From assembly GCF_900114835.1 (NCBI RefSeq), contig NZ_FOUJ01000007.1:1-64000 (forward strand): 64,000 bases of DNA, written 5' to 3'. Shown here piece after piece: positions 1 through 37,764 of this stretch (positions are counted from its first letter, which is position 1; each line of letters opens with the position of its first letter). The notes beneath the pieces are model-generated. The model was not told where the DNA came from. It saw only the letters and a list, made by a program, of their open reading frames with translations, and did no database searches. The position numbers were made by a program, and so were the translations under genes. The DNA comes from Methanolobus profundi. GTDB lineage: Archaea > Halobacteriota > Methanosarcinia > Methanosarcinales > Methanosarcinaceae.

Positions 1-888
1 TTTTACAGTGGAGCAAAGGTGCTTGCAGACTTGATAGATGAGATAGCTGACAAGCTAATAGCAGAAGGCTGGACGGATGGAGACACAACATGGGACACCA
101 CAGACAGGACGGTAGGTGCAAATGACGCAAGAAGGTGCCTGTACCACTCCACAGATGACATATATCTGACCCTGGAATGCCATGACCAATCATATTGGAT
201 ATATAGTACATCATACCAGGCAAAAGGATTGAGGATTGCATTTCATTCGACGTGGGATTCGGTGAACCACACATACCCGAACATGGACTATCATACCTAT
301 ATTCCATTCTTTGGAAGAAGCAGCACAACGCCAGTGACTAACTGTTTCTCGACTCAGCTAACATATTATTGTTGGGTGGATTCTACAGGATTTGTATTGA
401 TGGCAAGACCGGAAGCGAACTCAACTGATAACTTGCAAGTTTCAGCAATTACTGTGGTAGAAAGAATTGCCAGTAAAGAATACAGTGATGGCTTGACGAA
501 TTTCTACAACTACACGAAGTTGAATTACGAAGGCTGGAGGAACACTGCCGGGAACTCTCTAGGAAGATGTCATAACATGTGCAGGCCATTCACCTATACA
601 AATTCCTGGAGCACCGAAGGCATCCAGTTCTGGCACGCTGATTATCATGCGTTCAAGAGCGATGGGAACGGGAAGGTCTACTATGCAAAGCCCCTGATAT
701 TCAACGACCAGGCAGAGACAATGCCCATAGGTCAGAGCGAACTGTTCTTTATGTTCTCAGAAGGTGGCGGCCTTGTGGATGGAGATGTAGTAGCAATAGA
801 CGGAGCTACAACGAAGTTCCTGTGTATAGGAATGGACTCCCCAGACAACACAGGCAGGGTAAACTACGCAATAAAGTATGTAGAGTGA
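1..888 (+). CDS. Provirus structural-type protein, paralogue 1 (5' end outside window)
   Basis: The reading frame is open from base 1, and its first residues (FYSGAKVLADLIDEIAD) align with residues 3-19 of the next gene. The true start therefore lies a few bases before the window, and the GTG at 19 is not the start. About 295 residues are visible. I recognise no named family. The protein is rich in Trp, Tyr, Thr and Asp and has no signal peptide or membrane segment. It shares with the next gene a WDTTDR motif near the N-terminus, a GLR-(I/V)-x-F-x-STWDS segment, YSDGLTNFY, and a C-terminal VAIDGATTKFLC block. The tandem paralogues, tight spacing and nearby integrase suggest a virion (tail or fibre) component of an integrated element. 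That role is inferred from context only. Confidence 0.7.
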   Translation, partial: FYSGAKVLADLIDEIADKLIAEGWTDGDTTWDTTDRTVGANDARRCLYHSTDDIYLTLECHDQSYWIYSTSYQAKGLRIAFHSTWDSVNHTYPNMDYHTYIPFFGRSSTTPVTNCFSTQLTYYCWVDSTGFVLMARPEANSTDNLQVSAITVVERIASKEYSDGLTNFYNYTKLNYEGWRNTAGNSLGRCHNMCRPFTYTNSWSTEGIQFWHADYHAFKSDGNGKVYYAKPLIFNDQAETMPIGQSELFFMFSEGGGLVDGDVVAIDGATTKFLCIGMDSPDNTGRVNYAIKYVE

Positions 889-897
889 GGTGGAAAA

Positions 898-1812
898 ATG
901 GGATTTACAAGTGGAGCAAAAGTATTACCTGACATCGTGGATGAGATCGCTGATGCATTGATTGCATCTTCTGTGAACTGGGTAGAAGGAGATGCGACCT
1001 GGGATACAACTGATCGGAGCACAGAAGCTACGTTGGCTAGAAGATGCTTAAAATATACAGGAGATTCAGCAGACATCTGGATGACGCTGGAAGTTCATAA
1101 CTACAAGACAAGTGAAGCCATAAGGTATCAGGGAAATGATACTGGTGCACAGGGATTAAGGGTTACGTTTACATCAACTTGGGACTCTATAAACCATACC
1201 TGGGGAGACACGAAATTCCAGACATTTATTGGATTTGAGGGAAGGGACTGGTCTTATGATATGTACACCGACATGGCAACCCTTCAGATAAATTATTGGC
1301 TGTGGGTGGATTCTACAGGGTTTGTGGTAATGGGCAAACCAGAACCTTCAAGCAACGACAGGCAGTCAAGTTTCATCTGTGTAATGGAGCACATGGGCAC
1401 CAAAGAATATTCAGATGGCCTGACAAATTTCTATTGTTATACTACCAGAAACGCATGGTGGGCAGGCACTGGGGAACACTCTGGATTGGAAAATTACAGG
1501 ATGACCAGGCCATTCTCATTCCAGGACAGGGATGAAAACGATGGCATACAGTTCTACTATGACACGCCATACGCTCGGAAAAGCAACGGGAACGGGAAAG
1601 TCTATTTCATGAAGCCTGTGATACACAATACAGCAAACAACAAGACCCCAATATATCAGTCGGAGCTGTTTTTCAGGCTATCCATAGATGCAGGACTGGT
1701 GGACGGGGACGTGATAGCCATAGATGGAGCAACGACTAAGTTTCTGTGTAAGATGCTCACATCTCCGGACCATTCAAATGTGCTGGCGTTCGCTATGAAA
1801 TACGTGGCATGA
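898..1812 (+). CDS. Provirus structural-type protein, paralogue 2
   Basis: This 304-residue protein starts at an ATG nine bases after the previous stop, behind a GAGGTGG ribosome site. It is a clear paralogue of the upstream gene along its full length (WDTTDR near residue 40, YSDGLTNFY mid-protein, IDGATTKFLC near the C-terminus), with divergence and small indels between the blocks. No enzyme motif, signal peptide or membrane segment is visible. The next gene follows eight bases later behind a similar GAGGTGA site, so the three genes look like one late-type operon. I do not recognise the family. A virion-surface or tail-associated role is inferred from the neighbouring integrase and the repeat-rich next gene. 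An adhesin-like role cannot be excluded. Confidence 0.75.
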   Translation: MGFTSGAKVLPDIVDEIADALIASSVNWVEGDATWDTTDRSTEATLARRCLKYTGDSADIWMTLEVHNYKTSEAIRYQGNDTGAQGLRVTFTSTWDSINHTWGDTKFQTFIGFEGRDWSYDMYTDMATLQINYWLWVDSTGFVVMGKPEPSSNDRQSSFICVMEHMGTKEYSDGLTNFYCYTTRNAWWAGTGEHSGLENYRMTRPFSFQDRDENDGIQFYYDTPYARKSNGNGKVYFMKPVIHNTANNKTPIYQSELFFRLSIDAGLVDGDVIAIDGATTKFLCKMLTSPDHSNVLAFAMKYVA

Positions 1813-1820
1813 GGTGAAGC

Positions 1821-4562
1821 ATGGCATTTGATGCTGTCGTGTTCGGAACTTATGTTGTGGGAACAGGATTCACTGTGGGAGATTCAATATCTTCAGGCGG
1901 ATTCAGGTGTTTCATAGTGCCACAGGCCACAATAGGCGATGCGCCTCTGGATGTGACTATTACTTATGTAGACCAGTTTGGCAATTCACAAACAGCAGAC
2001 GTTAGCACTTCAGTAGAAGCCTATAAGACGTCGGGCAGTCACATAGAAATAGCTCTCAATGCAGGTGACACAGGGATCAGGAGTGTATCGGCAGTATCAG
2101 TGACAGGCGGGACAACAGGAGATGAGTTCACGCTTGAGAGCTGGAATGAAGGGTTAGGTGGTTCCCTTGCATTGGAATCATCAGATGCAAGCCAGCCAGA
2201 TTCAAATACAGGACTGATTGGTGTAAGGGAATTTTCACCGGCTATGCTGCTGGAAGAGGAAACAGAGAATGACCTGATGTTCACAGAAGGAGTCACTACG
2301 TTAAACGTGGACTATGATGGCGATATGTTCATGCTCCAGACAGAGCAGATCGACATCTATCCAGAGAACTCATCCCACGTAGATACAGATGATGGATTCC
2401 TGCCGGGTATGTTTACTCTGGATAATTCTACAATGAGCATGAAACTGGACCTGGCCGACGAAAGTGATTACAACAAGGTGGATGAGACCTACATGAACAA
2501 AGGGTTTGAGATAATCGCATCAGGCTTTATCCAGATAACCTTTGACTATGATGTAGTGCTGAATTCATCGTACTTCATTGCAGAGCTTGTGGACAGTGAA
2601 GGTACTGTGAAGTGGAGCAAGACAGGGACAGCTTCTGGCACTGGCCAGGTGGTTACCTTTGTAGACGATTACTGTGTATTCCGGGTCAGGTGCATTGCTC
2701 CGAATTCTCCTTCGGTCTGGACTTCGCCTGTGGATCCTTGGGACAACCACATGTACATAGGCAACGTGGTGCTGGACAGGTACAAGACTTCAGGCTACAT
2801 TGAGCAGACGGTTTACAAGTACAAGGAATTCATGAAAGCCTTGAGAATAATAGATCTTGGCTATACACTGGGCACAGCCGATACACAGGTGAAAGCTCAA
2901 ATCGATGTAGGTGACAGTCTGGCATCCACGTCAGGATTTGTAGGCCCGGACGGGACATCGAGCACTTATTATACAGACAACAACGGGAAAATATGGACAG
3001 GAACGGCTGCTGGCAAATACTGGAGAACGAAAGTATGGTTAACCGGTGACGGAAAGTACACGCCTTCATTTGACTTTATACGGTATTATTTCGACATGTG
3101 GATAAAGCACAGATTGCTCAGTTTCCCGGACACGAACCCCGCAACAGTGCTGGTCCCGGTTGATTTTCATCCACTGGTAATAGAGAGTTCACAGGCCAAT
3201 CAACCGGACAGTCAATTCTTTTATTTGTCTAAAAACGAGATGCTGCACTCGGCTCTAACGACAGACATAGAGATATCATTGGAGCACACCGCAGACGTGG
3301 ACAACAAGACCGGTGAGATTGGCCTGAGCACATACAGGATTAACAAAGAAGTGTTCGATGCTACAGATTTTGTATATGGCTGCATCACGAGCGGAGTGGT
3401 GTTCAATAACAATACCTTTGAACTAGAGGAAGAGGAAATCGAACCGAACTATTCAACAGAAATAGATGAGGATGACGGGTTCCTGTCGTGCAATGGCACC
3501 GTTGATGCAGGCAATAAAGAGCTGAAAATAGATCTGTTGGCAGACACTACATACACGGTGATAGATAGTAACTATCCGAATCATGGCTTCATATGGCAAG
3601 AATCAGGTTTTCTGTCGGTGGAGTTTGATTATGATGTGAATATCAACTCGAGCTACTTCATACTGGAGCTGCTGGACGCAGACGGGACGGTGGTATGGTC
3701 AAAGAGCGGTACTACTTCAGGCACCGGTCAGGTGGTCACTATGAACTCGACCAAGTTCCATTTCAGGCTCAGGTGTAAGGCAAATTACACGACACCGACA
3801 GACTACTCCGAAGGAATCACGGTCAGCAATATCAAAATAACCCGATATCCGACAACAGGACTGATAGAGATGCCCTGGTACCTGTGGAGAGAGCATAACA
3901 AGTCGCTGGATATATTCTATATGTCAATCACAGAAGCGGTAGGCTGCGATATAAGAGCACAAATCTACATCAGCGATGACCAGAGCGGAACACCGAATTC
4001 CGGATGGATTGGACCGGATGGTACAAGTACCACATCCTACAGTGCAGGTTATACGCCCATGAATAGTGCAGGATATGCAGGCAAATACTATAAGCTGAAA
4101 ATAATGTTTACCTCTGACGGGATGCACACACCCACATTCCACAGGATAGAGATACAGGAGACAATGTATATTTATCTACGACATCTGAAGTTGGCTACAT
4201 CTTGGTCAGAATCATCGGTAGGTGTGGTCATGTCCGGCTATGCCATTGATCAAGAAAGTAACCCTATAATGAACGCAATAAAAGTGATACTAGAGAGCAC
4301 CTATGTGTTCGGGAGGGATACAATGGGAGTGGTAAATCCGGAAACAGGTTTTTACCAGATATTCGTCAAGGATGCCTATTACGACAAGCGCCACCTGATA
4401 TTACAAGTGCCAGGGAAAACTACGAATCTATCTCTGCGAGGATATGGAACACCGGATGCAGTAGATGCTACATCAGGCATACCAGAGAACCAGGACTTAC
4501 AGTTCTGGAAGGCACCGCTATGCAAGTCCGTGGCTCATGTTGATTCACTTGTCACTTATTGA
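1821..4562 (+). CDS. Large repeat-containing provirus structural protein
   Basis: The protein has 913 residues and starts at an ATG behind GAGGTGA. It contains an internal duplication of roughly 250-300 residues. The first copy, at about 190-440, carries 'DDGFLPG', 'FDYDVVLNSSYFIAELVDSEG' in part, 'SGTGQVVT' and 'GFVGPDGTSSTYY'. The second copy, at about 550-810, carries the equivalents 'DDGFLSC', 'SSYFILELLDADG', 'SGTGQVVT' and 'GWIGPDGTSTTSY'. Residues from about 830 resemble a carboxypeptidase-regulatory-like beta-sandwich (VMSGYAIDQESNPIMNAIKV followed by GFYQIFV), a fold often appended to virion and adhesion proteins. There is no signal peptide or membrane segment. Its 3' end overlaps the convergent integrase gene by 18 bases. 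A virion tail or fibre role is likely but inferred. Confidence 0.75.
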   Translation: MAFDAVVFGTYVVGTGFTVGDSISSGGFRCFIVPQATIGDAPLDVTITYVDQFGNSQTADVSTSVEAYKTSGSHIEIALNAGDTGIRSVSAVSVTGGTTGDEFTLESWNEGLGGSLALESSDASQPDSNTGLIGVREFSPAMLLEEETENDLMFTEGVTTLNVDYDGDMFMLQTEQIDIYPENSSHVDTDDGFLPGMFTLDNSTMSMKLDLADESDYNKVDETYMNKGFEIIASGFIQITFDYDVVLNSSYFIAELVDSEGTVKWSKTGTASGTGQVVTFVDDYCVFRVRCIAPNSPSVWTSPVDPWDNHMYIGNVVLDRYKTSGYIEQTVYKYKEFMKALRIIDLGYTLGTADTQVKAQIDVGDSLASTSGFVGPDGTSSTYYTDNNGKIWTGTAAGKYWRTKVWLTGDGKYTPSFDFIRYYFDMWIKHRLLSFPDTNPATVLVPVDFHPLVIESSQANQPDSQFFYLSKNEMLHSALTTDIEISLEHTADVDNKTGEIGLSTYRINKEVFDATDFVYGCITSGVVFNNNTFELEEEEIEPNYSTEIDEDDGFLSCNGTVDAGNKELKIDLLADTTYTVIDSNYPNHGFIWQESGFLSVEFDYDVNINSSYFILELLDADGTVVWSKSGTTSGTGQVVTMNSTKFHFRLRCKANYTTPTDYSEGITVSNIKITRYPTTGLIEMPWYLWREHNKSLDIFYMSITEAVGCDIRAQIYISDDQSGTPNSGWIGPDGTSTTSYSAGYTPMNSAGYAGKYYKLKIMFTSDGMHTPTFHRIEIQETMYIYLRHLKLATSWSESSVGVVMSGYAIDQESNPIMNAIKVILESTYVFGRDTMGVVNPETGFYQIFVKDAYYDKRHLILQVPGKTTNLSLRGYGTPDAVDATSGIPENQDLQFWKAPLCKSVAHVDSLVTY

Positions 4563-5768
4563 AGTGGAATCACTATCATTCAACGCTTCCTTCAATTTCC
4601 CCAGGTATCCTTGCAATTCTTGGACATCCTTTGGTTCTTTTGCTCCTATTTCAAGAAGCAGTTGCATACCCAATTGTTGCATGTCATCAACATTCGTTGC
4701 TGCAACTGCATTAAGAGCCATTCCACAATTGCTGCAGAAATCTGCTGTTGGGCCATTTGTGGTCTTGCAACGTGGACAATTCTTAGGGGTAAGCTCCGAG
4801 GGCTTGTCCTGCTTTTCCTTTAGTCCATAATGTTCAAGTATGGTGCTGTCAACCTGAGCACCCGCAAGATGAATATATGTGCCGGACTGCCGCGTTCCAT
4901 GTACCCATCCCATGTTTTTTTCCAGCTGTGCCTGTGTCATAAATGTGGCATATTCTGTAATCCTTGAGTGCCTGAAAAGATGGTTATATACACGCTTTTT
5001 TATTCCGGCTTTATTTGCAGCTCTTTTTATGACCATTCGGATGCCGCCATATTTCATTGCCCTGCCTTTGTACTTCCCATAATTGACCCAAAGAGGTGCA
5101 TCTGGATTATCCCTTTCCGGATGCGTATCAAGCCACTTTGATACATAAGGGGCACTGAATACAAGTCGAATTCTGCGCATACCAGTCTTTCCTTTTACCA
5201 TCAGAACTGCACCATATACGTCTGGAACAAAGTGTTTAATCTTCGCTTCTCCCATCTCCCCGACTCTCCCGCCGGCATCATACCACATGGCAACCATAGC
5301 TCTGTTGCGCGGATGATCACATACGTCAATCATTTGCTTCACTTCATCTTCTGTGAGCAATTCTTCTGGCAATATCTGGTCACACTGCTTTATGTTTGTC
5401 TTGATCCATCTGGTTATCTCTGGATCTGTCTCACTATTATGCAACCATCTGAAAAAACGCTTGATTGTTACCTTGTACCCTTGTTTTGTCCATGCCTTTC
5501 GGTCAGATCTCTCAATCTCAGCCACTACTCTATACATATCAGATTTGGTGACTTCATCGAAGTCTTTGTCAAACCAGCTAGCTAGTATGTTTAAATTACT
5601 GAGATATTTGAGTATCCTCGCTTCAGATAGACCTTCAGCGTACAATACGTGAACAAAAGAAAAAATAGTGTCTTTATTTTTTTGAGAATAATCCGCATCA
5701 AGGACGCGTTGCTCAGCACTAGCTATTCTTTTACTGAAATCATATAATCCCATGCCATATACCTTCAT
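4545..5768 (-). CDS. Tyrosine recombinase/integrase with C-terminal zinc ribbon
   Basis: This is a site-specific recombinase of the XerC/D-lambda Int family, 407 residues long. The N-terminal SAM-like DNA-binding domain spans about 20-115 and the catalytic domain about 135-305. The catalytic set is visible: R168 in GGRVGE, K192 or K194, H263-x-x-R266 in HLFRHSR, H290 in GWVHG, and the nucleophile Y298. A short CxxC-x10-CxxC zinc ribbon (C331, C334, C345, C348) follows, then a helical tail. The gene lies next to the 3' end of tRNA-Thr and points away from it, the classic layout of an element integrated at a tRNA gene. A second possible start is MGLYDF, five codons in. The protein should act at attachment sites in the tRNA. 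The family assignment is firm, but activity of the element is unknown. Confidence 0.93.
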   Translation of the reverse strand: MKVYGMGLYDFSKRIASAEQRVLDADYSQKNKDTIFSFVHVLYAEGLSEARILKYLSNLNILASWFDKDFDEVTKSDMYRVVAEIERSDRKAWTKQGYKVTIKRFFRWLHNSETDPEITRWIKTNIKQCDQILPEELLTEDEVKQMIDVCDHPRNRAMVAMWYDAGGRVGEMGEAKIKHFVPDVYGAVLMVKGKTGMRRIRLVFSAPYVSKWLDTHPERDNPDAPLWVNYGKYKGRAMKYGGIRMVIKRAANKAGIKKRVYNHLFRHSRITEYATFMTQAQLEKNMGWVHGTRQSGTYIHLAGAQVDSTILEHYGLKEKQDKPSELTPKNCPRCKTTNGPTADFCSNCGMALNAVAATNVDDMQQLGMQLLLEIGAKEPKDVQELQGYLGKLKEALNDSDSTSISDK

Positions 5769-6556: not shown

Positions 6557-6614
6557 TATTCTCTTTTTCCCGGAAAACGTTAAATCATAAAAATGTACAT
6601 TGGGTAGGTTAGTC

Positions 6615-7229
6615 ATGACATTCAATGCTTTAAGACCTGTAGCAACAAAGATACTTGAGCCAATTGCCAGAAAAATGGCAGATGCCGGCATATCTCCAAA
6701 TGCTATATCAATGCTCTCTCTCTTGTTTGCAGCGTTTTCAGGTTTTCTATACTACTACTCGGCCTTTGACCCGCTTCTGGTGCTTGTAGCCGGGCTGCTG
6801 GTAGCCCTGAACTCATTCTTCGATGCAATGGATGGTCTTATAGCCCGATATCTCGATATAGCCAGTGCAAGAGGCGATTTCCTTGACCATGTCATAGATC
6901 GTTATTCGGATGTATTCATCATCTGCGGTATCTTCTTTGGAGGCTATGTTAGCTGGCAGATCGGTGTTGCTACAATAGTCGGTGTGCTTCTAACAAGTTA
7001 TCTTGGTACACAGGCACAGGCACTTCAGCTTGGAAGATACTATGGTGGTATCATTGGAAGGGCTGACAGACTGGTTCTTATCATGCTCTCTTCAGTGGTC
7101 TATTTCGTCTACCAGTCACCAATATATGGTTTCTCGGTCCTTGGATGGATGATCATAATAATCGGAATAGGTAGTCACATAACAGCTTTCCAGCGTATTG
7201 CCCATATCTGGAAACAACTTGGAGAATGA
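6615..7229 (+). CDS. CDP-alcohol phosphatidyltransferase (archaetidylinositol-phosphate synthase-like)
   Basis: This integral membrane enzyme of 204 residues transfers a polar alcohol to a CDP-activated ether lipid. The complete CDP-alcohol phosphotransferase motif is present: D70-x2-D73-G74-x2-A77-R78-x8-G87-x3-D91-x3-D95. About five or six hydrophobic segments follow an amphipathic N-terminus. I chose the ATG at 6615 over the TTG at 6600. Closest in feel are archaeal archaetidylinositol-phosphate synthases, which join CDP-archaeol to inositol 1-phosphate. Archaetidylglycerol-phosphate synthase is the alternative. Pyrimidine-rich sequence after the stop (7234-7268) probably terminates transcription. 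A second member of the superfamily, PssA, occurs at 14300-14971. Confidence 0.88.
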   Translation: MTFNALRPVATKILEPIARKMADAGISPNAISMLSLLFAAFSGFLYYYSAFDPLLVLVAGLLVALNSFFDAMDGLIARYLDIASARGDFLDHVIDRYSDVFIICGIFFGGYVSWQIGVATIVGVLLTSYLGTQAQALQLGRYYGGIIGRADRLVLIMLSSVVYFVYQSPIYGFSVLGWMIIIIGIGSHITAFQRIAHIWKQLGE

Positions 7230-12855: not shown

Positions 12856-13930
12856 ACTGATCAAAGATGTGGTCTCGTCAATAGCAGAATATGTTCCCGG
12901 TAAGTCCATCGAGGAAATAGCTCAGAAATATGGCATTGCTCCATCTGAGATAATCAAACTGGGATCAAATGAGAATGTACTTGGTCCTTCCCCTATGGCA
13001 GTTGAGGCTCTGTTCTCCACTGCATCGAAGGTCAATATCTATCCTTCTGCTGATGCTACAGAACTTGTAGAGGCTATCTCGGCCTATACAGGTCTTCCTG
13101 TTGAGAATATCTGTGCTTCAGGTCCTGGTATGGATGGGTTGCTTGATAACCTGATGAGGCTCCTTATCGAACCGGGTGATGAGGTTGTTATCCCGACCCC
13201 TACGTTCTCCTATTATGAGATCGCAGCACGTGCTAATGGTGCTGTGGCGGTCCATGTGGCACCGGGAGATGAACTGGAGTTCGATGTGGAAGCTATCAAG
13301 GATGCCATCTCTGACCGGACAAAGGTGATATTCCTTTGTTCACCGAACAATCCAACTGGTAAACTGTTGGCAGAGGATGATGTACGCAAGATCCTTGGAT
13401 CAACAAAGGGTCTGGTTTTTGTGGATGAGGCCTATGTAGAGTTCGCAGACCATGATCTCTCTGGCCTTGTGGCAGAATATGATAATCTCATTATTGGAAG
13501 GACGTTCTCAAAGGCATTCGGACTTGCAGGATTGCGGATCGGGTACGGGCTCATGCCTGCATGGCTTAAAGCCCAGTACATGAAGATCGCAACTCCGTTC
13601 AATGTCAGTCTCCCTGCTGTAATGGCAGGTGTGGCAGCACTTTCGGATACCGAGTATCTTGAAAAGAGCATTTCATGCACAAAGGAAGGTCGTGTGTTCC
13701 TTGCAGAGAACATTCCTTTCAAAGTGTATGATTCCCAGGCAAATTTCGTACTTGTGGATGTATCTCCAATGATCGCTGCTGATGTTGCAGGATCTCTGCT
13801 TGAAAAAGGTATTATCGTCAGAGATTGCAGGTCATTTAAGAACGCAGGTGATTCCCTTATCCGTGTGACCGTGGGAACCCCTGAGCAGAATAAGAAAGTG
13901 GTTGAGGCCTTTAAGGAAGCAAAGGCCTGA
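12842..13930 (+). CDS. hisC: Histidinol-phosphate aminotransferase
   Basis: HisC transaminates imidazole-acetol phosphate with glutamate in histidine synthesis. The 362-residue class I/II aminotransferase shows [41 protein letters not shown] and the PLP lysine K224 in [17 protein letters not shown]. The start TTG lies inside the argD 3' end, so translation is probably coupled. The gene ends two bases before the convergent mptD stop. Aromatic amino acid aminotransferase activity is possible in this family, but HisC fits best. Confidence 0.93.
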
Positions 13931-13931
13931 A

Positions 13932-14291
13932 TCAATATATTTTTTCTATTTTCATAAGCGGATAGTCAAGTTCTGTATCAAATGCAAGACTTACATCTGC
14001 TTTTGCACTTTTAAAATTAGCAGTTATCCTGACATCCAGCATACGGCCTTCCAGTTCACAATAGCCATATTCGCTGTTCAGTTTGGAACTTATCATATCC
14101 CTGTTGATCGACACTTTGATATCCTCTACGCATGGCTGGACCGAGATGCTTTCCTGTATCGCTATCTCAAGGCTGTCCACTGTTCTGAGATTGACAGGTG
14201 AGCCTGTGAACTGGTGATAGAGGGCACCAAGTTTTATTCCGGCTTCGAAAAGCACATTGTCCCTGTCAGTTATTGTTTTATTTTGCTGCAT
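13932..14291 (-). CDS. mptD: Archaeal dihydroneopterin aldolase MptD
   Basis: MptD cleaves 7,8-dihydroneopterin to 6-hydroxymethyl-dihydropterin and glycolaldehyde in tetrahydromethanopterin synthesis. The archaeal family (once DUF381) is recognised from FEAGIKLGALYHQFTGSPV, the central ESISVQPCVEDIKV and the C-terminal YPLMKIEKIY. Length is about 119 residues. An ATG at 14303 overlaps the pssA stop, but the ATG at 14291 lies six bases behind GAGG and is preferred. It is the last gene of the artA-psd-pssA-mptD operon. The link to the lipid genes is positional only. Confidence 0.9.
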   Translation of the reverse strand: MQQNKTITDRDNVLFEAGIKLGALYHQFTGSPVNLRTVDSLEIAIQESISVQPCVEDIKVSINRDMISSKLNSEYGYCELEGRMLDVRITANFKSAKADVSLAFDTELDYPLMKIEKIY

Positions 14292-14299
14292 GATATTCC

Positions 14300-14971
14300 T
14301 CATGTAGTCCTTTTGATAATTGGTGATAGTACATATATCGCCATTATCCCTGACAAGAGGGATGCGAATATATGCATAATTTCGATGTTGATGAAATATG
14401 AGATCATTGTTGCTGCGAAGATCAGTGTCAATGGCATGAGGATTCTCTTGTCCCTTGCTTTCATGTATGGGATATCACTTATCATGAGCACTCCAAGTAT
14501 CAGGACTATTGCGGTCACCAGGTAACCGTTAAGGAAAACCTCTCCCATGAGCAGATATGAGGCTATGGCTATTCCACCTGCAGTGATCGGCAGGCCGCTG
14601 AATGAATTAAGTTCCTGATGCATGGTATTGAACCTTGCAAGTCTGAGTATCCCACAAACGAAATAGAATATCAGTGCCGGAAGCAAGATGTATTGCATTC
14701 TGCTTTCCATGATCGCAAATGTGATTATCACTGGTGTTACTCCAAAAGAGATGACATCTGCAAGTGAGTCCAGATTACTTCCTATCTCACTGGACGAGAA
14801 CTTTCTGGCTATGTGGCCATCAAGGCCATCTGCAACTGCTGCAATGAGGATCAGCAAAGGTGCAAGATAGGTCGGCTCGTTCAACGTCAGAAGAATAGCT
14901 GTTATTCCGCATAATGCATTTAGAAGGGTGACGAGGTCAGGTAATTTTAAAGTATGGAGTATCTGGTTCAC
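14300..14971 (-). CDS. pssA: Archaetidylserine synthase (CDP-alcohol phosphatidyltransferase)
   Basis: The enzyme joins CDP-archaeol and L-serine to give archaetidylserine. The 223 residues form about eight membrane segments and carry the CDP-alcohol phosphotransferase motif in D48-G-L-D51-G52-H-I-A55-R56, then G64, D68 and D72. The SNLDSLADVISFGVTP extension is typical of the phosphatidylserine synthase branch. It follows psd by five bases and overlaps an upstream ATG of mptD. The adjacent decarboxylase, acting on the product, strongly supports the serine assignment. In Haloferax, PssA is required for lipid anchoring of archaeosortase substrates, which makes its position in the artA operon meaningful. 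Confidence 0.93.
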   Translation of the reverse strand: MNQILHTLKLPDLVTLLNALCGITAILLTLNEPTYLAPLLILIAAVADGLDGHIARKFSSSEIGSNLDSLADVISFGVTPVIITFAIMESRMQYILLPALIFYFVCGILRLARFNTMHQELNSFSGLPITAGGIAIASYLLMGEVFLNGYLVTAIVLILGVLMISDIPYMKARDKRILMPLTLIFAATMISYFINIEIMHIFASLLSGIMAIYVLSPIIKRTT

Positions 14972-14976
14972 ATCCT

Positions 14977-15585
14977 TTATCTTATTCTGGCGATAACCGT
15001 TTCTCCGGCAAATACCCTGTCGCCTTTCTTTGTTAGTATCTCAAAGTTCTCAGGGATCGTTACATCTACCCTTGAACCAAAACGGATCATTCCAAAACGC
15101 TGTCCCTGTTGCATGTAATCTCCTTCCTGTACATAGGAGACTATTCTGCGGGTCACGGTTCCGGCGATCTGTATGACCTCCACGATCCCGTGTTCTGTCT
15201 CAATTAGCGTATGGCTTCTTTCATTTCTGTGTGAGTCCTTACAGAAAGCAGGTATGTATCCTCCTTTCTTATGTTCTATCATGTGGACCTTTCCGTTGAT
15301 AGGTGCCCTGTTGACGTGCACGTTCTGGAAGTTCATGAATATGCAGACCTTTCTGTCTCTTATATCCACGATCCTCCCATCGGCTGGTGAGAGCATGTAG
15401 CTGTTATGTTCCTTGATATCTCTTTCAGGGTCCCTGAAAAAGAAAAGAAAGAATATTGTCACACATATAGATAAAAATGCAACCGTATCTGTATATGGTA
15501 TCTTATACAAAAGATAGGTCAGCGAACTGACCATACCTGCAATTACAGATGTCAGTATCCATGGAAAAGAACCTTTCGCAAGCAT
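14977..15585 (-). CDS. psd: Archaetidylserine decarboxylase
   Basis: This is a pyruvoyl-dependent decarboxylase of the phosphatidylserine decarboxylase family, converting archaetidylserine to archaetidylethanolamine. The 202 residues have two N-terminal membrane segments (about 8-28 and 32-50). The core shows FFRDPERD, LSPADGRIVDI, FMNFQNVHVNRAP and, near the C-terminus, RFGSRVDV. Cleavage between G170 and S171 should generate the pyruvoyl group. The short archaeal/bacterial type lacks the long N-terminal region of E. coli Psd. The start ATG directly abuts the artA stop, and pssA follows after five bases. Confidence 0.94.
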   Translation of the reverse strand: MLAKGSFPWILTSVIAGMVSSLTYLLYKIPYTDTVAFLSICVTIFFLFFFRDPERDIKEHNSYMLSPADGRIVDIRDRKVCIFMNFQNVHVNRAPINGKVHMIEHKKGGYIPAFCKDSHRNERSHTLIETEHGIVEVIQIAGTVTRRIVSYVQEGDYMQQGQRFGMIRFGSRVDVTIPENFEILTKKGDRVFAGETVIARIR

Positions 15586-16401
15586 TTATTGGTTTCCTAC
15601 TACTTTATAGAATAGCTTCTGAACGAATCTGGTAACCAATAGCCAGACCCCTTCTATCAGATCTATGAGCTCGGGCAGGATACGCATGACCACATAGGCG
15701 ATAACAAATAGCGCAACACCGGATCCTATCTTTGCGATATTATGATGTGCGATCTCAAAGCTATTTGGGCCAAACCACTGATATCCGTAAGCCATGATGA
15801 CAAATACGTCCCTTATTATATTCAATATGTATATAACAGGTACTGATGCTATGAATGCAGCGGCCAGTCTCTTGAATGGTGCATTTACAGATGCTATAAG
15901 TCCTATGAACAAAGCTATGCTCTCAATTGCAGTACATGCAAGGATGATCTCTACCTGATAGCCGCTGAGTGCTATCTTGTTCCATGCGGTTAGTTCTGCA
16001 GGTACGTTCAGAAGATGCAGCATCCAGAGTACATTATCTGTTACCTGGGCTATTATCCATACATTCAGGAATTCCATTTGTGCGAATGGGAAATAGAACA
16101 GGGAACCAAGGGCTGTAGCACTTGTTGCCATTGTTGTTATGTCCGGACTGGATATATTTCCATCCTTGTACTCTTTGAGCATAGTATATGCTATTATCAG
16201 GCATACTATGCCTACAGTGATGACCAGGGCAACATTAAAATAATCTTTTATCTCAATGTAATGTAATGGCTGGTAGAACCAGTGTATGGAAAAGAATGCC
16301 CATCCTGCGGCAGACAAGGCTCTACGCGGTCTGAAACTTTTTGGGATAATTGACCCGAGTAGCATGAAAGCTACAGCAATCCATAGAATATTCTCGATCA
16401 T
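15586..16401 (-). CDS. artA: Archaeosortase (ArtA-type)
   Basis: This multi-spanning exosortase-like transpeptidase processes proteins bearing C-terminal sorting signals and prepares them for lipid attachment. The 271 residues contain about seven or eight membrane helices. Conserved elements are ACTAIES (C156), NIIRDVFV (R197) and FEIAHHNIAKIG (H219, H220). The 41-residue spacing between Cys and Arg equals that of the catalytic pair reported for Haloferax ArtA (C173, R214). It is the first gene of the operon with psd and pssA. ArtA normally recognises PGF-CTERM, yet the two substrate-like proteins in this window end in PEF-CTERM, so an ArtC-type specificity should be considered. Confidence 0.88.
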   Translation of the reverse strand: MIENILWIAVAFMLLGSIIPKSFRPRRALSAAGWAFFSIHWFYQPLHYIEIKDYFNVALVITVGIVCLIIAYTMLKEYKDGNISSPDITTMATSATALGSLFYFPFAQMEFLNVWIIAQVTDNVLWMLHLLNVPAELTAWNKIALSGYQVEIILACTAIESIALFIGLIASVNAPFKRLAAAFIASVPVIYILNIIRDVFVIMAYGYQWFGPNSFEIAHHNIAKIGSGVALFVIAYVVMRILPELIDLIEGVWLLVTRFVQKLFYKVVGNQ

Positions 16402-16467
16402 TTAAGCACACCTTTAATAGGTATGGCTCCTATATATTTGATGTAGCCTATTAAGTTTTTGTTCATT

Positions 16468-16884
16468 ATGTCTCTTAATACCCCAAAGCTTACAGTTGAT
16501 GCAGTGATCCTATTGGATGAAAAGATCGTTCTCATAGAACGAAAGAATCCTCCGTTCCGGGGCAAATTTGCACTTCCCGGTGGTTTTGTAGATATTGGTG
16601 AGACAACTGAGGAAGCTGTTGCACGTGAGGTTATGGAAGAGACCGGTCTTACAATAGAAATAGTTAAGTTACTTGGGGTATATTCTGAACCTTCGCGCGA
16701 CCCTCGCGGGCATACTGTGAGCATAGTCTATATGGTCCGGGGGAAAGGTGTCCCAAAGGCAGATTCGGATGCAAAAGGAGTATATTTATTTGATATCCAT
16801 GACATACCGGAAATGGCCTTTGACCATAACTTAATAATAGAGAATGCGAGAAGTGATATTTATGGAATTTTGTCCCGAATGTAA
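16468..16884 (+). CDS. Nudix hydrolase
   Basis: This 138-residue pyrophosphohydrolase acts on a nucleoside diphosphate linked to another group. The Nudix box is complete: G39-x5-E45-x7-R53-E54-V-M-E57-E58-T-G60. It is preceded by a VDAVILL strand and followed by a GVYSEPSRDPRGH segment, often seen in ADP-ribose or NDP-sugar types. ATG at 16468 is preferred to an in-frame TTG at 16459. No strong ribosome site is visible, but a TATA-like CTATATATTTG about 30 bases upstream suggests a short leader. The 3' end overlaps the TFS gene by 23 bases. The substrate is unknown. Confidence 0.9.
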   Translation: MSLNTPKLTVDAVILLDEKIVLIERKNPPFRGKFALPGGFVDIGETTEEAVAREVMEETGLTIEIVKLLGVYSEPSRDPRGHTVSIVYMVRGKGVPKADSDAKGVYLFDIHDIPEMAFDHNLIIENARSDIYGILSRM

Positions 16885-19163: not shown

Positions 19164-19790
19164 TCAGTCCTTTCTGCGCTGCATGAAGAATGCAAGTCCG
19201 ATAATTGCTGCCATTGGGATAGCTACGGTTGGGAACTCCGGAATTTCCTGCTCACAGTTGACCTTTTCAACAGTCACCTGCATGCTTCCGCTGATGCCTG
19301 TTATTGGTTGCTGGTTTATATATAATGTGTCAAATGCGAAGTTATATACTCCTCCTGCAACACCTTCAAATGTTACAGTGCCGGTTACTGGTATTGTTTG
19401 TGTACCTATTATGAGGTCTGCAGTAAAGCCGATCTTATTGTTAAGTACCCATACATCTATTCCTTCAGGGAAATTCAGATTTGCAATATCGATCTGAGCT
19501 GGTAGTGTATATGGTACGGTGGGGTTACTTGTGAATGATTTTACTGTAACAATAGTTCCTTCTTTGCTAACTGTACCATCAGCAACTATATTCATAGTTG
19601 GGGGGATAAGATTTGCATAGTAAGCTGGGATGCATGCAGGGTCAATGTTATAGTTTCCATTGATGCTTATATGGTAGCATCCATCTTCCTGGCTCATCAA
19701 ATAGTGATATGGGTTGATCTGTGCACTTGCAACTAATGTTGTTGAAGACAACATCACCATTAGTATTAATAGTAAACTTGTTTTTTTCAT
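19164..19790 (-). CDS. PEF-CTERM secreted protein 1, unknown function
   Basis: The 208 residues start with a signal peptide (MKKTSLLLILMVMLSSTTLVASA). The mature part is beta-rich, and the end is a tripartite sorting tail: PEFPTV motif, hydrophobic helix (AIPMAAIIGLAFFM) and basic cluster (QRRK). This is the PEF-CTERM signal, an archaeosortase substrate tag replaced by an anchor after processing. The central region has no recognised enzyme motif and four cysteines are spread along the mature chain. GGTGG lies six bases before the ATG, and the same GGTGGTAC leader precedes the second PEF-CTERM gene. Both proteins share the design but little sequence outside the tail. A cell-surface role is inferred. 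Confidence 0.85.
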   Translation of the reverse strand: MKKTSLLLILMVMLSSTTLVASAQINPYHYLMSQEDGCYHISINGNYNIDPACIPAYYANLIPPTMNIVADGTVSKEGTIVTVKSFTSNPTVPYTLPAQIDIANLNFPEGIDVWVLNNKIGFTADLIIGTQTIPVTGTVTFEGVAGGVYNFAFDTLYINQQPITGISGSMQVTVEKVNCEQEIPEFPTVAIPMAAIIGLAFFMQRRKD

Positions 19791-20013: not shown

Positions 20014-21378
20014 TTACTTCCTGCGCTGCATGAAGAATGCCAGTCCAACGATCGCTGCCACTGGAATAGCTATTGTTGGGAACTCAGGTATCTCTTCCTG
20101 TCCGCATTGGTGCATGTCCAGTGTAAAAGCTCCTGTCAGGTCATACTGCATGTAGCCACCTGTTGGGAGTGGTACTCTTACGTATCCTGAGCTTGATATT
20201 ATGCTCAGGTCACATGCTTTTATCAACATCTCTCCATAGAATGGATATCCCATGTTGCATGTCCCTGTGGCTGTAACTGTTATAACTCCCGTATCTTCGT
20301 CCAGTATGGCTACCACGTTCAAACTTCCTTCATCTATTTCCGGGTAGCTTCCTGTTGTATCCACATTGGTTATTCTTATTATTCCGCTGTCGAAGTCTGC
20401 CTGTATGTCTGCTTTCAGGTTGAACGTTCCCTGTATGTCCTGTGCAGTGTATGTTCCTTCCAGGGTTCCACAGTACATACCATCAGGTAGTTCTGTGCAG
20501 CATTCTCCTATGTCCAGTGTGAACTGTCCGGTGAGGTCATATTGTGTATATCCTCCTGTTAGCAGCGGGATCCTTACGTATCCTGAACTTGACATTATGC
20601 TGAAGTCGCATGCTTTTATCAGCATCTCTCCATAGAATGGATGTCCCATGCCACATGTTCCTGTTGCGGTTACTGTTATGGTCCCTGTATCTTCGTCCAG
20701 TATGGCTACTACGTTCAAACTTCCTTCATCTATTTCCGGGTAGCTTCCTGTTGTATCCACATTGGTTATTCTTATTATTCCACTGTCGAAGTCTGCCTGT
20801 ATGTCTGCTTTCAGGTTGAACGTTCCCTGTATGTCCTGTGCACTGTATGTTCCTTCCAGGGTTCCACAGTAAGTCCCATCAGGTAGCTCCATGCAACATT
20901 CTTCTACGTCCAGTGTGAAATCTCCTTCGAGGTCATATTGTGTATATCCTCCTGTTTGCAGGGGAATCCTTACATATCCTGAATTTGATCTGATGCTGAA
21001 GTCACATGGGTCAATAAGCATCTCTCCGTAGAATGGATAGCTCATTCCACATTTCCCTGTAGCGATAACTTTTATGAGTCCATTGTTCTCAAAGGTTGCA
21101 ATTATGTTCAAAGTACTTTCATCAATAGCAGGGTTACTGCCACTGGTGTCAATATTTGTAATTGTTATCATCTCATTGTCAAGGTCCGCTTTCACATCTG
21201 CCTTAAGGGTGAATGTAGCACCGTACAACGGATGATCTTTGCTTACGTCGGGTGTATAGGTTCCATTTAATGTGCCACAGTATGTCCCATCATCAGGAAG
21301 ACACTGCTTAGCACTTGCATTCGCGATTGTTAACATAAGTATCAATGCGATTACAGTCAGTATGCTCAATTTCTTCAC
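20014..21378 (-). CDS. PEF-CTERM secreted protein 2 with three tandem domains
   Basis: I place the start at GTG 21378, five bases behind GGTGG. The ATG at 21390 contains that ribosome site, and the first PEF-CTERM gene has the same GGTGGTAC leader. This gives 454 residues: signal peptide (KKLSILTVIALILMLTIANASA), three tandem domains with a 132-residue period, and a tail PEFPTI, hydrophobic helix, QRRK. Each domain begins with LPDGTYCGTLEGTY or a variant, contains ADFDSGIIRITNVDT or a variant and FYGEMLI, and ends FTLD-(I/V/M). Each has conserved Cys pairs. The function is unknown. It is probably surface anchored by the archaeosortase system. Near identity at DNA level between the last two domains shows recent duplication or gene conversion. 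Confidence 0.85.
   Translation of the reverse strand: MKKLSILTVIALILMLTIANASAKQCLPDDGTYCGTLNGTYTPDVSKDHPLYGATFTLKADVKADLDNEMITITNIDTSGSNPAIDESTLNIIATFENNGLIKVIATGKCGMSYPFYGEMLIDPCDFSIRSNSGYVRIPLQTGGYTQYDLEGDFTLDVEECCMELPDGTYCGTLEGTYSAQDIQGTFNLKADIQADFDSGIIRITNVDTTGSYPEIDEGSLNVVAILDEDTGTITVTATGTCGMGHPFYGEMLIKACDFSIMSSSGYVRIPLLTGGYTQYDLTGQFTLDIGECCTELPDGMYCGTLEGTYTAQDIQGTFNLKADIQADFDSGIIRITNVDTTGSYPEIDEGSLNVVAILDEDTGVITVTATGTCNMGYPFYGEMLIKACDLSIISSSGYVRVPLPTGGYMQYDLTGAFTLDMHQCGQEEIPEFPTIAIPVAAIVGLAFFMQRRK
20115..21300 (-). repeat. Three tandem 396-bp coding repeats
   Basis: The marker TGTCCAGTGT recurs at 20115, 20511 and (as CGTCCAGTGT) 20907, a constant period of 396 bases or 132 codons. Segments 20305-20480 and 20701-20876 differ at only about three positions. 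The 21100-side repeat is much more diverged and contains a longer loop. Confidence 0.85.
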
Positions 21379-21463
21379 TCGTACCACCATTGGTCATTTA
21401 TTTCTAAACTAATTATTTATAAAGAGATATACATCTTACATATATTTCTAATGTATGTTTGTA

Positions 21464-32990: not shown

Positions 32991-33059
32991 TTATTAAGGG
33001 TATACATGATGTAATCTAGATATATCTATCTCATATTATTGATCATTACCAGTGGAACC

Positions 33060-34370
33060 ATGGCCGGATTTAGTGACAAGATAAAAAAGATGACCTCTTC
33101 TCTTTCCAAGAAGGGCAAAAAAAAGGGAGCAGACTCTCCATTCGACTCAGGTTCACCTCCATTTCTTGAAGGACCTGACCTGGGTTCCGTTCCTGATCTA
33201 TCCGCAGGTTTCCCCCCGGCACCACCAGGTGGGCCACCTGGCATGGGTGCTCCTGATGCAGGTGGTTCTCCTCAATTCCCGCCAGGTATGGCTCCTCCGG
33301 GTGCCCCTCCTGGCCCGCCAGGCTCAGCACCACAGGCCCAACAGTCCTCTGTGAGCAATGAGATGGTCGAGGAGAATCGTAAAAAGCTCAAAGATGTTGA
33401 GACCAAGCTCTCAAAGGCAGATGTGACCCTCAATATGGTCCAGAGAGAGAATGAGGAGGTCAAGAAGACCGTAGATAAGATAGACCAGAGTGTCCTTGAA
33501 CTTCTATCCCTCTATGAGATCGTGTCCAATCAGGTAAATCCATTTGTAGGCGATGATGTAGGTTCACGTGCAACTATCGAGCGATTCGAGAAAACAGAGA
33601 CCCGTCTCACCGAAATGGGTGATATGCTGGTTCTCCTGAAGAACGAAATGGATTCTAATGCACAGAAGTTGAGCATGCCTCAGGGTATCTCTACAGAAGT
33701 CGAATCCCGAATGCAGGACCTTGAGTCGAAGATGGATGCATTTGCAGATGCTATGGTCATGCTGCATGAAAGTATCGAAAAATTGTCTGCAAAGTCCGAG
33801 GATGTATTAATTCGTACTGACACTCTTGACCAGAATATAATGGACCTTGCGGAGACAACAGCTAATATTACTTCAAGGCTTGATGATCTGGAAAAGAGAC
33901 CTGTGTCCACAAAAGAAGTAATTACCAAAGAAGAAGGCATCTCTGTGGATGAGAATGGAGATGAGGTCGAAGCTGAGCACGTTGGGTCCGCTGCTCCTAA
34001 AAAGGCTGTTATCCCGATGGTTCGTCTGGAATCCATTAAGGCAGATCCTACAAGTGTCGTTGTTCTTCTTAACTGGATCGAGTTCCTGATGGAACGTGTT
34101 GGAAGGAACAATCTAATGGATGCACTTGATTATTATGTTGATATTGGCTGGATAAGCGAAGATGTCATGTCCGAGATCATGGCCTATGCACGAGGTATCG
34201 ATTATTATGTGGAGAAACCCACATGGCGTCTCCTTCCAGAAGATCATACCAAGTCTCTCCTGTTCATTGAAAGGCTCTCAGGACGTAAGATCGACAGGAA
34301 CATGCTAAGTTCCATAGACAGGGAAATGGCAAAGGTAAAGCACGGTCTGGAGGAACTTTATGGGATTTGA
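33060..34370 (+). CDS. Archaellum cytoplasmic-ring protein, ArlC/D/E fusion type
   Basis: The 436 residues start at ATG 33060, shortly after GTGGAA (an upstream TTG at 33039 is less likely). The N-terminus is a short basic region. A low-complexity Pro/Gly/Ala-rich linker (about 40-95, many PPG repeats) follows, then long coiled coils (about 98-290, FlaC-like). The C-terminal FlaD/E domain (about 325-436) shows VRLESIKADPTSVVVLLNWIE (in part) and ALDYYVDIGWISEDV. ArlC/D/E proteins link the archaellum motor to the chemotaxis adaptor CheF and form the ring below ArlH/ArlI. The coding end overlaps arlF by 11 bases. Confidence 0.88.
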   Translation: MAGFSDKIKKMTSSLSKKGKKKGADSPFDSGSPPFLEGPDLGSVPDLSAGFPPAPPGGPPGMGAPDAGGSPQFPPGMAPPGAPPGPPGSAPQAQQSSVSNEMVEENRKKLKDVETKLSKADVTLNMVQRENEEVKKTVDKIDQSVLELLSLYEIVSNQVNPFVGDDVGSRATIERFEKTETRLTEMGDMLVLLKNEMDSNAQKLSMPQGISTEVESRMQDLESKMDAFADAMVMLHESIEKLSAKSEDVLIRTDTLDQNIMDLAETTANITSRLDDLEKRPVSTKEVITKEEGISVDENGDEVEAEHVGSAAPKKAVIPMVRLESIKADPTSVVVLLNWIEFLMERVGRNNLMDALDYYVDIGWISEDVMSEIMAYARGIDYYVEKPTWRLLPEDHTKSLLFIERLSGRKIDRNMLSSIDREMAKVKHGLEELYGI

Positions 34371-34791
34371 ACTATCTGTTGTAGCTATCATCTTTTTTAT
34401 ATCTGCGATAATTCTGGGAACGTTCTCCTATACAATGCTGAGTAATTCCAATGATGTGATCGACAGTGCTTCTGATGATAAATATCGTATGCAGAGCATG
34501 AAACTTCAAACCGATATAGTTGTGGATGATTCAATACCGGACATCTCAGGTAGTGATTACAATCTGACATTGACAGTTTCTAACACAGGCAGCGAAACTC
34601 TTCATTTTGACAGGTTGAATGTTCTTGTTGACGGGAACCTGCAAGCATATACATATACGGAAACTGCAGATTTCTGGACCCCTGAGGAATCAAGGAACCT
34701 GACCGTTACAGGTCTGTCCGGCTTAGGTATGCACAGGGTCAAGGTAGTGACCGAGAACGGCATTTCAGCTTATGATACATATCTTGTATGA
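34360..34791 (+). CDS. arlF: Archaellum stator protein ArlF
   Basis: The 143-residue protein has one N-terminal membrane helix (about 5-25, VVAIIFFISAIILGTFSY) and an extracellular beta-sandwich (MKLQTDIVVDD...YNLTLTVSNTGSETLHFDRLNVLVDG). This is the layout of ArlF, which binds the S-layer and acts with ArlG as stator of the rotary motor. It is translationally coupled to the upstream ArlC/D/E gene. The archaellin-like N-terminus lacks a class III prepilin cleavage site, separating it from filament subunits. Confidence 0.9.
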   Translation: MGFELSVVAIIFFISAIILGTFSYTMLSNSNDVIDSASDDKYRMQSMKLQTDIVVDDSIPDISGSDYNLTLTVSNTGSETLHFDRLNVLVDGNLQAYTYTETADFWTPEESRNLTVTGLSGLGMHRVKVVTENGISAYDTYLV

Positions 34792-34802
34792 TCAGAATGG
34801 CA

Positions 34803-34813
34803 GTTTTATATAC
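34803..34813 (+). promoter_or_regulatory. Possible internal promoter before arlG
   Basis: TTTTATATACT lies about 55-65 bases before the arlG ATG in a 75-base, very AT-rich gap, the only sizeable gap inside the operon. It could support separate transcription of arlGHIJ. Confidence 0.35.
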
Positions 34814-34866
34814 TATCAATTATATATTAATATAAAATTCGAAGAATTCCGGACTGGCAGAAAAAC

Positions 34867-35373
34867 ATGAGACTCATGCTAACTACAGAGAGAAACAACC
34901 TATTAGAGGATACGGCTGCGGACACAGCTATCACCCATATGATATTTTTCATAGCAGCCATTATTCTTGCTATCAGCGTGGTTGCCGTTATATCAGGGGA
35001 TGTACAGTCAATGATGTCCTCGTCAAGTTCAAGCAGCAGGTTACTCTCTGATCAGATGAGGACCGATATCACGATAGTGAACGATCCTGAGATGATCCCT
35101 TATGATAATACTACCCAGAAATATACCTTCTATGCGAAGAACACCGGAAAAACAGAATTAGTGCCGGAATTTATCACTGTCATTGTTGATGGTATCCTCA
35201 TTGTACCAAACGATGTTGACACAAGTCTTGTAGACGGTGATGTAGTGTGGCGACCAGGAGATGTTCTGACACTCAATGTGACAACTGTTCCTAACCCACT
35301 GGGGTCTGGTGATCACAGAGTACTTGTAGCATCTGAGAATGGCAAGTCCGGTTCAATGAGCTTTAAAACGTAG
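34867..35373 (+). CDS. arlG: Archaellum stator protein ArlG
   Basis: The 168 residues have an N-terminal cytoplasmic segment, one membrane helix (about 24-46, THMIFFIAAIILAISVVAVI), a serine-rich spacer (MMSSSSSSSR) and a beta-sandwich ectodomain (YTFYAKNTGKTELVPEFITVIVDG). ArlG forms filaments capped by ArlF and links the motor to the envelope. It is related to ArlF, as expected. An alternative start four codons in (MLTTERN) is possible. arlH follows after 13 bases behind AGAGG. Confidence 0.9.
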   Translation: MRLMLTTERNNLLEDTAADTAITHMIFFIAAIILAISVVAVISGDVQSMMSSSSSSSRLLSDQMRTDITIVNDPEMIPYDNTTQKYTFYAKNTGKTELVPEFITVIVDGILIVPNDVDTSLVDGDVVWRPGDVLTLNVTTVPNPLGSGDHRVLVASENGKSGSMSFKT

Positions 35374-35386
35374 ATCAGAGGCAAAA

Positions 35387-36082: not shown

Positions 36083-36099
36083 GCTGAAAGGGAGTTTAT

Positions 36100-37755: not shown

Positions 37756-37764
37756 GTGAGTTTT

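What the first reader, a model, noticed from the sequence alone, without database searches (positions are those of the whole stretch)
13932..16401. Archaeosortase cotranscribed with archaetidylserine synthase and decarboxylase
artA, psd, pssA and mptD are packed with gaps of zero to five bases or overlaps. In Haloferax, PssA and PssD are needed for lipid anchoring of ArtA substrates. The operon here physically joins the sorting enzyme to the supply of the presumed lipid (archaetidylethanolamine). The ArtA Cys-Arg spacing (C156, R197) matches the known pair.
Basis: partly seen in the sequence, partly recalled or inferred. Interest (0 to 1): 0.55.

Follow-up and report, generated by a model that had tools for sequence, protein, structure and literature searches.

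The report
Archaeosortase operon with lipid headgroup genes
A methanogen keeps the enzyme that ties surface proteins to membrane lipid in one gene cluster with the two enzymes that make the suspected lipid; this arrangement was already published, but relatives that keep the tying enzyme and have lost both lipid enzymes suggest that the lipid is not the same in all archaea.

Summary
On the minus strand artA, psd, pssA and mptD follow each other with gaps of 0, 5 and -4 bases, and profiles confirm all four names. I add that the cluster is much wider (80 of 110 ArtA loci sampled, 12 families) and that psd is single-copy here, so the enzymes must also serve bulk lipid. New, and against AE as the universal acceptor: of 119 phylum genomes, all with ArtA and PGF-CTERM signals, 32 lack Psd, and 29 of these lack PssA too. 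The 30 genomes without a recognisable PssA in that test are the same 30 that carry another CDP-alcohol transferase subfamily ("CAPT-M"), which lies convergent to artA in 76 of 80 Methanomicrobiales loci. Papers say Methanomicrobiales use aminopentanetetrol lipids instead. So the operon fits AE supply here, while relatives predict a different ArtA lipid. mptD looks like a passenger.

The parts
15586..16401 (-). artA, archaeosortase A, 271 aa, C156/R197
   Evidence: TIGR04125 270.7 bits, cut-off 75; C156 and R197 invariant in 111 of 111 rows
14977..15585 (-). psd (asd), archaetidylserine decarboxylase, 202 aa, pyruvoyl cleavage site G170-S171
   Evidence: NF003685 274.9 bits, cut-off 183; PF02666 143.1; S171 invariant in 17 of 17 rows, G170 at least 90%
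14300..14971 (-). pssA (ass), archaetidylserine synthase, 223 aa, GTG start
   Evidence: TIGR04217 249.4 bits, cut-off 200; PF01066; D48, D51, G52, A55, G64, D68 and D72 invariant in 17 of 17 rows, R56 at least 90%
13932..14303 (-). mptD, dihydroneopterin aldolase of methanopterin synthesis, 123 aa; probably a passenger of the operon
   Evidence: PF04038 141.6 bits; downstream of the cluster in 41 of 51 clustered loci long enough to show it
16402..16458 (.). 57-base intergenic stretch shared with the divergent Nudix gene; holds a TATA-like AAATATATAGG and an AAAGGTG before artA (read by eye, inferred promoter)
   Evidence: inference
16459..16884 (+). divergent Nudix hydrolase, upstream neighbour (not part of the operon)
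   Evidence: PF00293; divergent next to artA in 41 of 42 loci of the window's family

Best explanation
This is a protein lipid-anchoring operon. PssA joins CDP-archaeol and serine to archaetidylserine, Psd decarboxylates it to archaetidylethanolamine (AE), and ArtA cuts PGF-CTERM surface proteins and passes the new C-terminus from its cysteine to an amine of that lipid. The enzyme identities are shown by profile and motif. The dependence of ArtA processing on PssA and PssD is shown by others in Haloferax. That AE itself is the acceptor is inferred there and here. The same PssA and Psd must also make bulk archaetidylserine/AE, since the genome has one psd locus and one strong pssA match. mptD belongs to the probable transcript but not to the function.
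For: Profile matches above cut-off. Gaps of 0, 5 and -4 bases. artA-psd-pssA in 80 of 110 sampled loci: 80 of 83 in 12 families (the three misses are extra ArtA copies of two f3 genomes), 0 of 27 in 14 other families. Catalytic residues kept. PGF-CTERM signals in the genome, 6 matches. Published deletion, cleavage and lipid-label results (PMC7157517, sections 6 and 11 and passages). The related Methanosalsum natronophilum, whose genus by recall includes clustered genome G003, has the serine and ethanolamine headgroups PS 5 and PE 1 percent of peak area (PMC6423904 Table 3).
Against: No expression data. ArtA and its signals persist without Psd in many relatives: 32 of 119 ArtA genomes lack Psd, all 32 with PGF-CTERM matches. 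The published lipid released from the S-layer protein was archaetidic acid, so the headgroup was never seen. Single-copy enzymes mean that shared housekeeping could explain the linkage.
Confidence: 0.65

Rival explanations
1. The operon is ordinary lipid housekeeping. PssA and Psd make bulk polar lipids; artA and mptD are neighbours by inheritance, and the Haloferax effect is indirect.
For: psd has one locus and pssA one strong match in the genome, so they must serve bulk lipid. mptD, with an unrelated function, is as closely packed as the others and sits in 41 of 51 long clustered loci. ArtA also occurs without either enzyme.
Against: In Haloferax AE is scarce, yet both deletions block ArtA cleavage and lipid labelling. 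The trio stays together over 12 families while upstream neighbours differ.
Confidence: 0.25
2. ArtA's acceptor is archaetidylserine or any amine lipid, and Psd only tunes it.
For: G226 (f18) has PssA of the NCBIfam 'protein sorting system' type, 276.4 bits, cut-off 200, but no Psd by two searches. AE was reported absent from Halobacterium salinarum and Haloarcula marismortui (passage).
Against: In Haloferax the pssD deletion alone blocks cleavage. f18 is 2 genomes only.
Confidence: 0.1

Closest known systems
artA-pssA-pssD synteny of Methanosarcina (Haft 2012, recalled and as cited; Abdul-Halim 2020, PMC7157517)
   Same: Same three gene families next to each other in the same family of methanogens; same proposed function.
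   Different: The published text as I read it names Methanosarcina, and several methanogens for artA-pssA; it does not discuss mptD, the wider spread, or ArtA genomes without Psd (sections 6 and 11 and searched passages).
Haloferax volcanii ArtA, HvPssA, HvPssD
   Same: Homologous enzymes; Cys and Arg pair with the same 41-residue spacing.
   Different: Genes unclustered there; third catalytic residue Arg253 there, His-His here; this PssA and Psd score below the haloarchaeal 'protein sorting system' models, 107.2 against 200 and 172.7 against 240 bits.
Archaeosortase C / PEF-CTERM system
   Same: Second archaeosortase in the same genome (L002, TIGR03762 340.8 bits); two PEF-CTERM proteins lie 3-5 kb from artA in the window.
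   Different: Different enzyme and signal; 14 PEF-CTERM against 6 PGF-CTERM matches in the genome. artC lies on another contig, without psd or pssA within the 3.3 kb held.

Membership tests
Archaeosortase A (TIGR04125) | Whole-protein score above curated cut-off | tested here: met
   270.7 bits against 75
Archaeosortase A (TIGR04125) | Catalytic Cys and Arg | tested here: met
   C156, R197; 111 of 111 rows
Archaeosortase A (TIGR04125) | Third catalytic Arg (H. volcanii Arg253) | tested here: not met
   H219-H220 in the window; 102 of 111 rows have H at 219; most haloarchaeal rows have D-R there. A lineage difference inside the family (the same His is in Methanosarcina-type and Methanomicrobiales ArtA), so membership is kept on the profile
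Archaeosortase A (TIGR04125) | PGF-CTERM substrates in the genome | tested here: met
   6 matches to TIGR04126
Archaeosortase A (TIGR04125) | Cleavage and lipidation activity | not testable with these tools
   needs biochemistry
Archaetidylserine synthase (TIGR04217) | Score above cut-off and CDP-alcohol motif | tested here: met
   249.4 against 200; motif residues conserved
Protein-sorting-system archaetidylserine synthase (NF038086) | Score above cut-off | tested here: not met
   107.2 against 200
Phosphatidyl/archaetidylserine decarboxylase (NF003685, PF02666) | Score above cut-off and Gly-Ser self-cleavage site | tested here: met
   274.9 against 183; 143.1 against 22; FGSR at 169-172
Archaetidylserine decarboxylase equivalog (TIGR00164) | Score above cut-off | tested here: not met
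   196.7 against 230
Dihydroneopterin aldolase MptD (PF04038) | Score above cut-off | tested here: met
   141.6 against 25
CAPT-M as archaetidylinositol phosphate synthase (NF040950) | Score above cut-off | tested here: not met
   84.2-130.9 against 180 in 12 of 12 CAPT-M proteins scanned (9; L224, L226, L228)
CAPT-M as archaetidylserine synthase | Score above a PssA cut-off | tested here: not met
   TIGR00473 at most 31.8 against 107; TIGR04217 at most 23.9 against 200

The most novel reading that the evidence does not exclude
ArtA's lipid partner differs between lineages. Where the PssA-Psd pair is kept, as in this operon, surface proteins are tied to archaetidylethanolamine. Where both were lost (Methanomicrobiales, Methanocellales and two further families), a distinct CDP-alcohol transferase subfamily, CAPT-M, replaces PssA, and ArtA uses its product, most likely an aminopentanetetrol phospholipid. 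CAPT-M would then be the missing synthase of that headgroup.
Probability: 0.25. Interest if true: 0.75.

Novelty: new member of a known kind. Interest (0 to 1): 0.48.

Why it matters
The lipid that ArtA attaches to the S-layer and other surface proteins has, as far as I read, never been seen intact; AE is the working hypothesis. The operon is one more case in its favour. The relatives give a clean natural experiment: genomes with ArtA and PGF-CTERM proteins but no route to AE that Psd and PssA searches can find. Analysing one anchored C-terminal peptide in Methanospirillum or Methanoculleus against Methanosarcina would decide whether AE is general. The same comparison names a candidate gene for the unexplained aminopentanetetrol headgroup.

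Tried and rejected
CAPT-M as merely the diverged orthologue of the inositol-type transferase: Methanocella-like genomes (f14) hold CAPT-M and, in G156, a separate orthologue of the window's own transferase at 6600-7229. In a tree of 39 rows the 14 CAPT-M rows form one group with support 90/89, in 90% of bootstraps, apart from the other types. The support is moderate and deep branches are long, so this is not closed.

artA/CAPT-M adjacency as proof of function: rejected as weak. They are convergent, not an operon, and other neighbours are conserved in the same block. In f14, f20 and f12 CAPT-M is not next to artA.

mptD as a functional partner: no supporting evidence found; it is absent next to the cluster in 10 of 51 long clustered loci.

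Nearby PEF-CTERM proteins as ArtA substrates: rejected, since the genome has its own ArtC.

A terminator hairpin after mptD: fold of 13850-13990 no better than shuffles, z 0.24.

Structure prediction and fold search were not used; sequence profiles were decisive for all four genes.

Full report
What is there. Profiles name them ArtA (270.7 bits, cut-off 75), a serine decarboxylase (NF003685 274.9, cut-off 183; below the cut-off of TIGR00164 and NF038088), archaetidylserine synthase (TIGR04217 249.4, cut-off 200) and dihydroneopterin aldolase (PF04038 141.6). A 57-base stretch separates artA from a divergent Nudix gene; it holds a TATA-like run before artA (read by eye). hisC ends one base from mptD on the other strand, so the cluster stops there. 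Cotranscription is inferred, not shown.

Residues. C156 and R197 are invariant in 111 of 111 ArtA rows: the window plus 110 ORFs from fetched loci, with two duplicates of the window dropped. Their 41-residue spacing equals that of Cys173 and Arg214 in H. volcanii (passage of PMC9263693). The third residue reported there, Arg253, is not conserved: the window has His-His where the haloarchaeal rows have mostly Asp-Arg. Psd keeps its Gly-Ser cleavage site and PssA its CDP-alcohol motif.

What was known. PMC7157517 (sections 6 and 11 and searched passages) reports artA-pssA-pssD synteny in Methanosarcina, credits Haft 2012 for artA-pssA, shows that both lipid enzymes are needed for ArtA cleavage and lipid labelling in Haloferax, and proposes AE as the nucleophile. 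Haft 2012 itself is not held.

How wide. ArtA is in 149 of 149 genomes of the class (148 over cut-off) and 119 of 119 of the phylum (117 over cut-off). I fetched neighbourhoods for a part of these: 110 loci in 26 families counted, f12 not sampled. artA-psd-pssA is together in 80 of 110: 42 of 42 loci in the window's family, 14 of 14 in f5, 6 of 6 in f9, and so on, 80 of 83 in 12 families, and 0 of 27 in the other 14. The three misses among the 83 are extra ArtA copies of f3 genomes. mptD follows in 41 of the 51 clustered loci long enough to tell.

Not dedicated. The window's genome has one psd locus and one strong pssA match. So these enzymes must also make bulk lipid. This makes plain housekeeping linkage a serious rival.

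Result against AE as a universal acceptor. Psd (PF02666) is missing from 32 of 119 phylum genomes, all at least 90% complete. A profile from 17 diverse archaeal Psd rows found none in those 32 at E 0.1, and found all 3 positive controls added, two of which come from genomes whose Psd was in the profile. By family: f8 6 of 6, f14 4 of 4, f16 5 of 6, f19 4 of 4, f24 2 of 2, f25 1 of 1, f26 3 of 3, f20 2 of 2, f18 2 of 2, f12 2 of 2, and one draft of f10. PssA is also missing from 29 of the 32: a 17-row PssA profile found a real match in G226 and G225, an unclear one in G163, and in G154 a match that is CAPT-M itself. All 119 genomes have PGF-CTERM matches, 118 over cut-off. ArtA in 16 of the 32 genomes (19 rows) keeps Cys and Arg; the other 16 were not fetched. 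The two f12 genomes have only fragments of ArtA and should be discounted. In the class around G187, Psd is in 1 of 149 genomes. On an ArtA tree of 64 chosen rows the Psd-less label needs 4 changes, 3 forced by well-supported branches, so it is probably not one event; the root is uncertain.

Who they are. A scan of named genomes with an ArtA profile gave 80 loci titled Methanoregula, Methanoculleus, Methanolinea, Methanospirillum, Methanocalculus and other Methanomicrobiales (a few titles say only Euryarchaeota). DNA matches tie f24 (100% over 6,870 bases), f19 (89%), f16 (86%) and f8 (85%) to such records.

The replacement. In these loci artA is convergent with a CDP-alcohol transferase, here called CAPT-M: 76 of 80 named loci, with 3 too short to tell and 1 with it elsewhere; no Psd and no PssA above 100 bits in any of the 80 flanks held. 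CAPT-M scores below the cut-offs of all named models. Its profile finds 30 of 119 genomes at 240 bits or more; the next hits are at 114 bits or less. These 30 are the 29 Psd- and PssA-less genomes plus G195, which has a divergent Psd but no PssA. Of the other 89, 86 have a PssA-family match at E 8.5e-17 or better and 3 (G163, G184, G221) are unclear. CAPT-M is in 146 of 149 genomes of that class. The profile was built from f8, f14, f16, f19, f24, f25 and f26 members; f12 and f20 were found by it. Shared descent inflates these counts.

Lipids in print. Methanomicrobiales are said to be unique in having aminopentanetetrols (PMC2686161, passage). In Methanospirillum this headgroup, methylated to differing degrees, dominates the archaeol lipids, and the word ethanolamine does not occur in the main text (PMC11346949, passages). 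Methanocalculus alkaliphilus had 81% of peak area in two such headgroups and no PE, PS or PI, while Methanosalsum natronophilum had PS, PE and PI and none of these (PMC6423904, Table 3 in a passage). M. hungatei anchors its S-layer, in the authors' model, by a PGF-CTERM protein (PMC11641113, passages). Genotype and lipids agree.

Limits. The aminopentanetetrol lipids reported in the passages I read are N-methylated; an amide needs a free or monomethyl amine, so a monomethyl or unmethylated form, or an ester, would be required. Synthesis of this headgroup was not described in what I saw of the six papers of the held library that use the word: listings for all six and passages of three. That no one has noted ArtA without Psd rests on searches of an open-licence library only.

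Verdict. The finding is real and correctly read, but its core is published. Its value lies in the comparison: AE supply is a good model for this clade and a poor one for about a quarter of the phylum genomes searched.

Noticed in passing
window 19164-19790 and 20014-21390, minus strand: Two PEF-CTERM surface proteins (31.2 and 36.4 bits, cut-off 23); the second carries three similar repeats. Likely ArtC substrates.
   Followed up: partly
L002 955-1779 (own genome, contig C11): Archaeosortase C, 340.8 bits, so the genome runs two sorting systems.
   Followed up: partly
window 19-5768: Long, partly paralogous ORFs of unknown kind followed by a tyrosine-recombinase-like ORF at 4545-5768 (by eye); perhaps the edge of an integrated element.
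   Followed up: no
window 33039-39420: Looks like an archaellum gene block (fla-like ATPase and membrane genes, by eye).
   Followed up: no
L045, L046, L068 (f3 genomes G111 and G102): Second and third ArtA copies outside the lipid cluster.
   Followed up: no
L104 7993-9783 (f26): Two ArtA-like genes in tandem, separate from the main artA of that genome.
   Followed up: no
L122 1383-2066 (G226, f18): Haloarchaeal sorting-system PssA, 276.4 bits, in a genome without detectable Psd.
   Followed up: partly
L116 1966-2421 and other f10 Psd genes: Short Psd homologues apparently lacking the N-terminal membrane part; artA is unclustered in these genomes.
   Followed up: no
L117 2001-2828 (G195): A divergent 276-aa Psd in an f16 genome (Methanomicrobiales) that has CAPT-M but no PssA; 1 of 149 genomes of the class.
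   Followed up: partly
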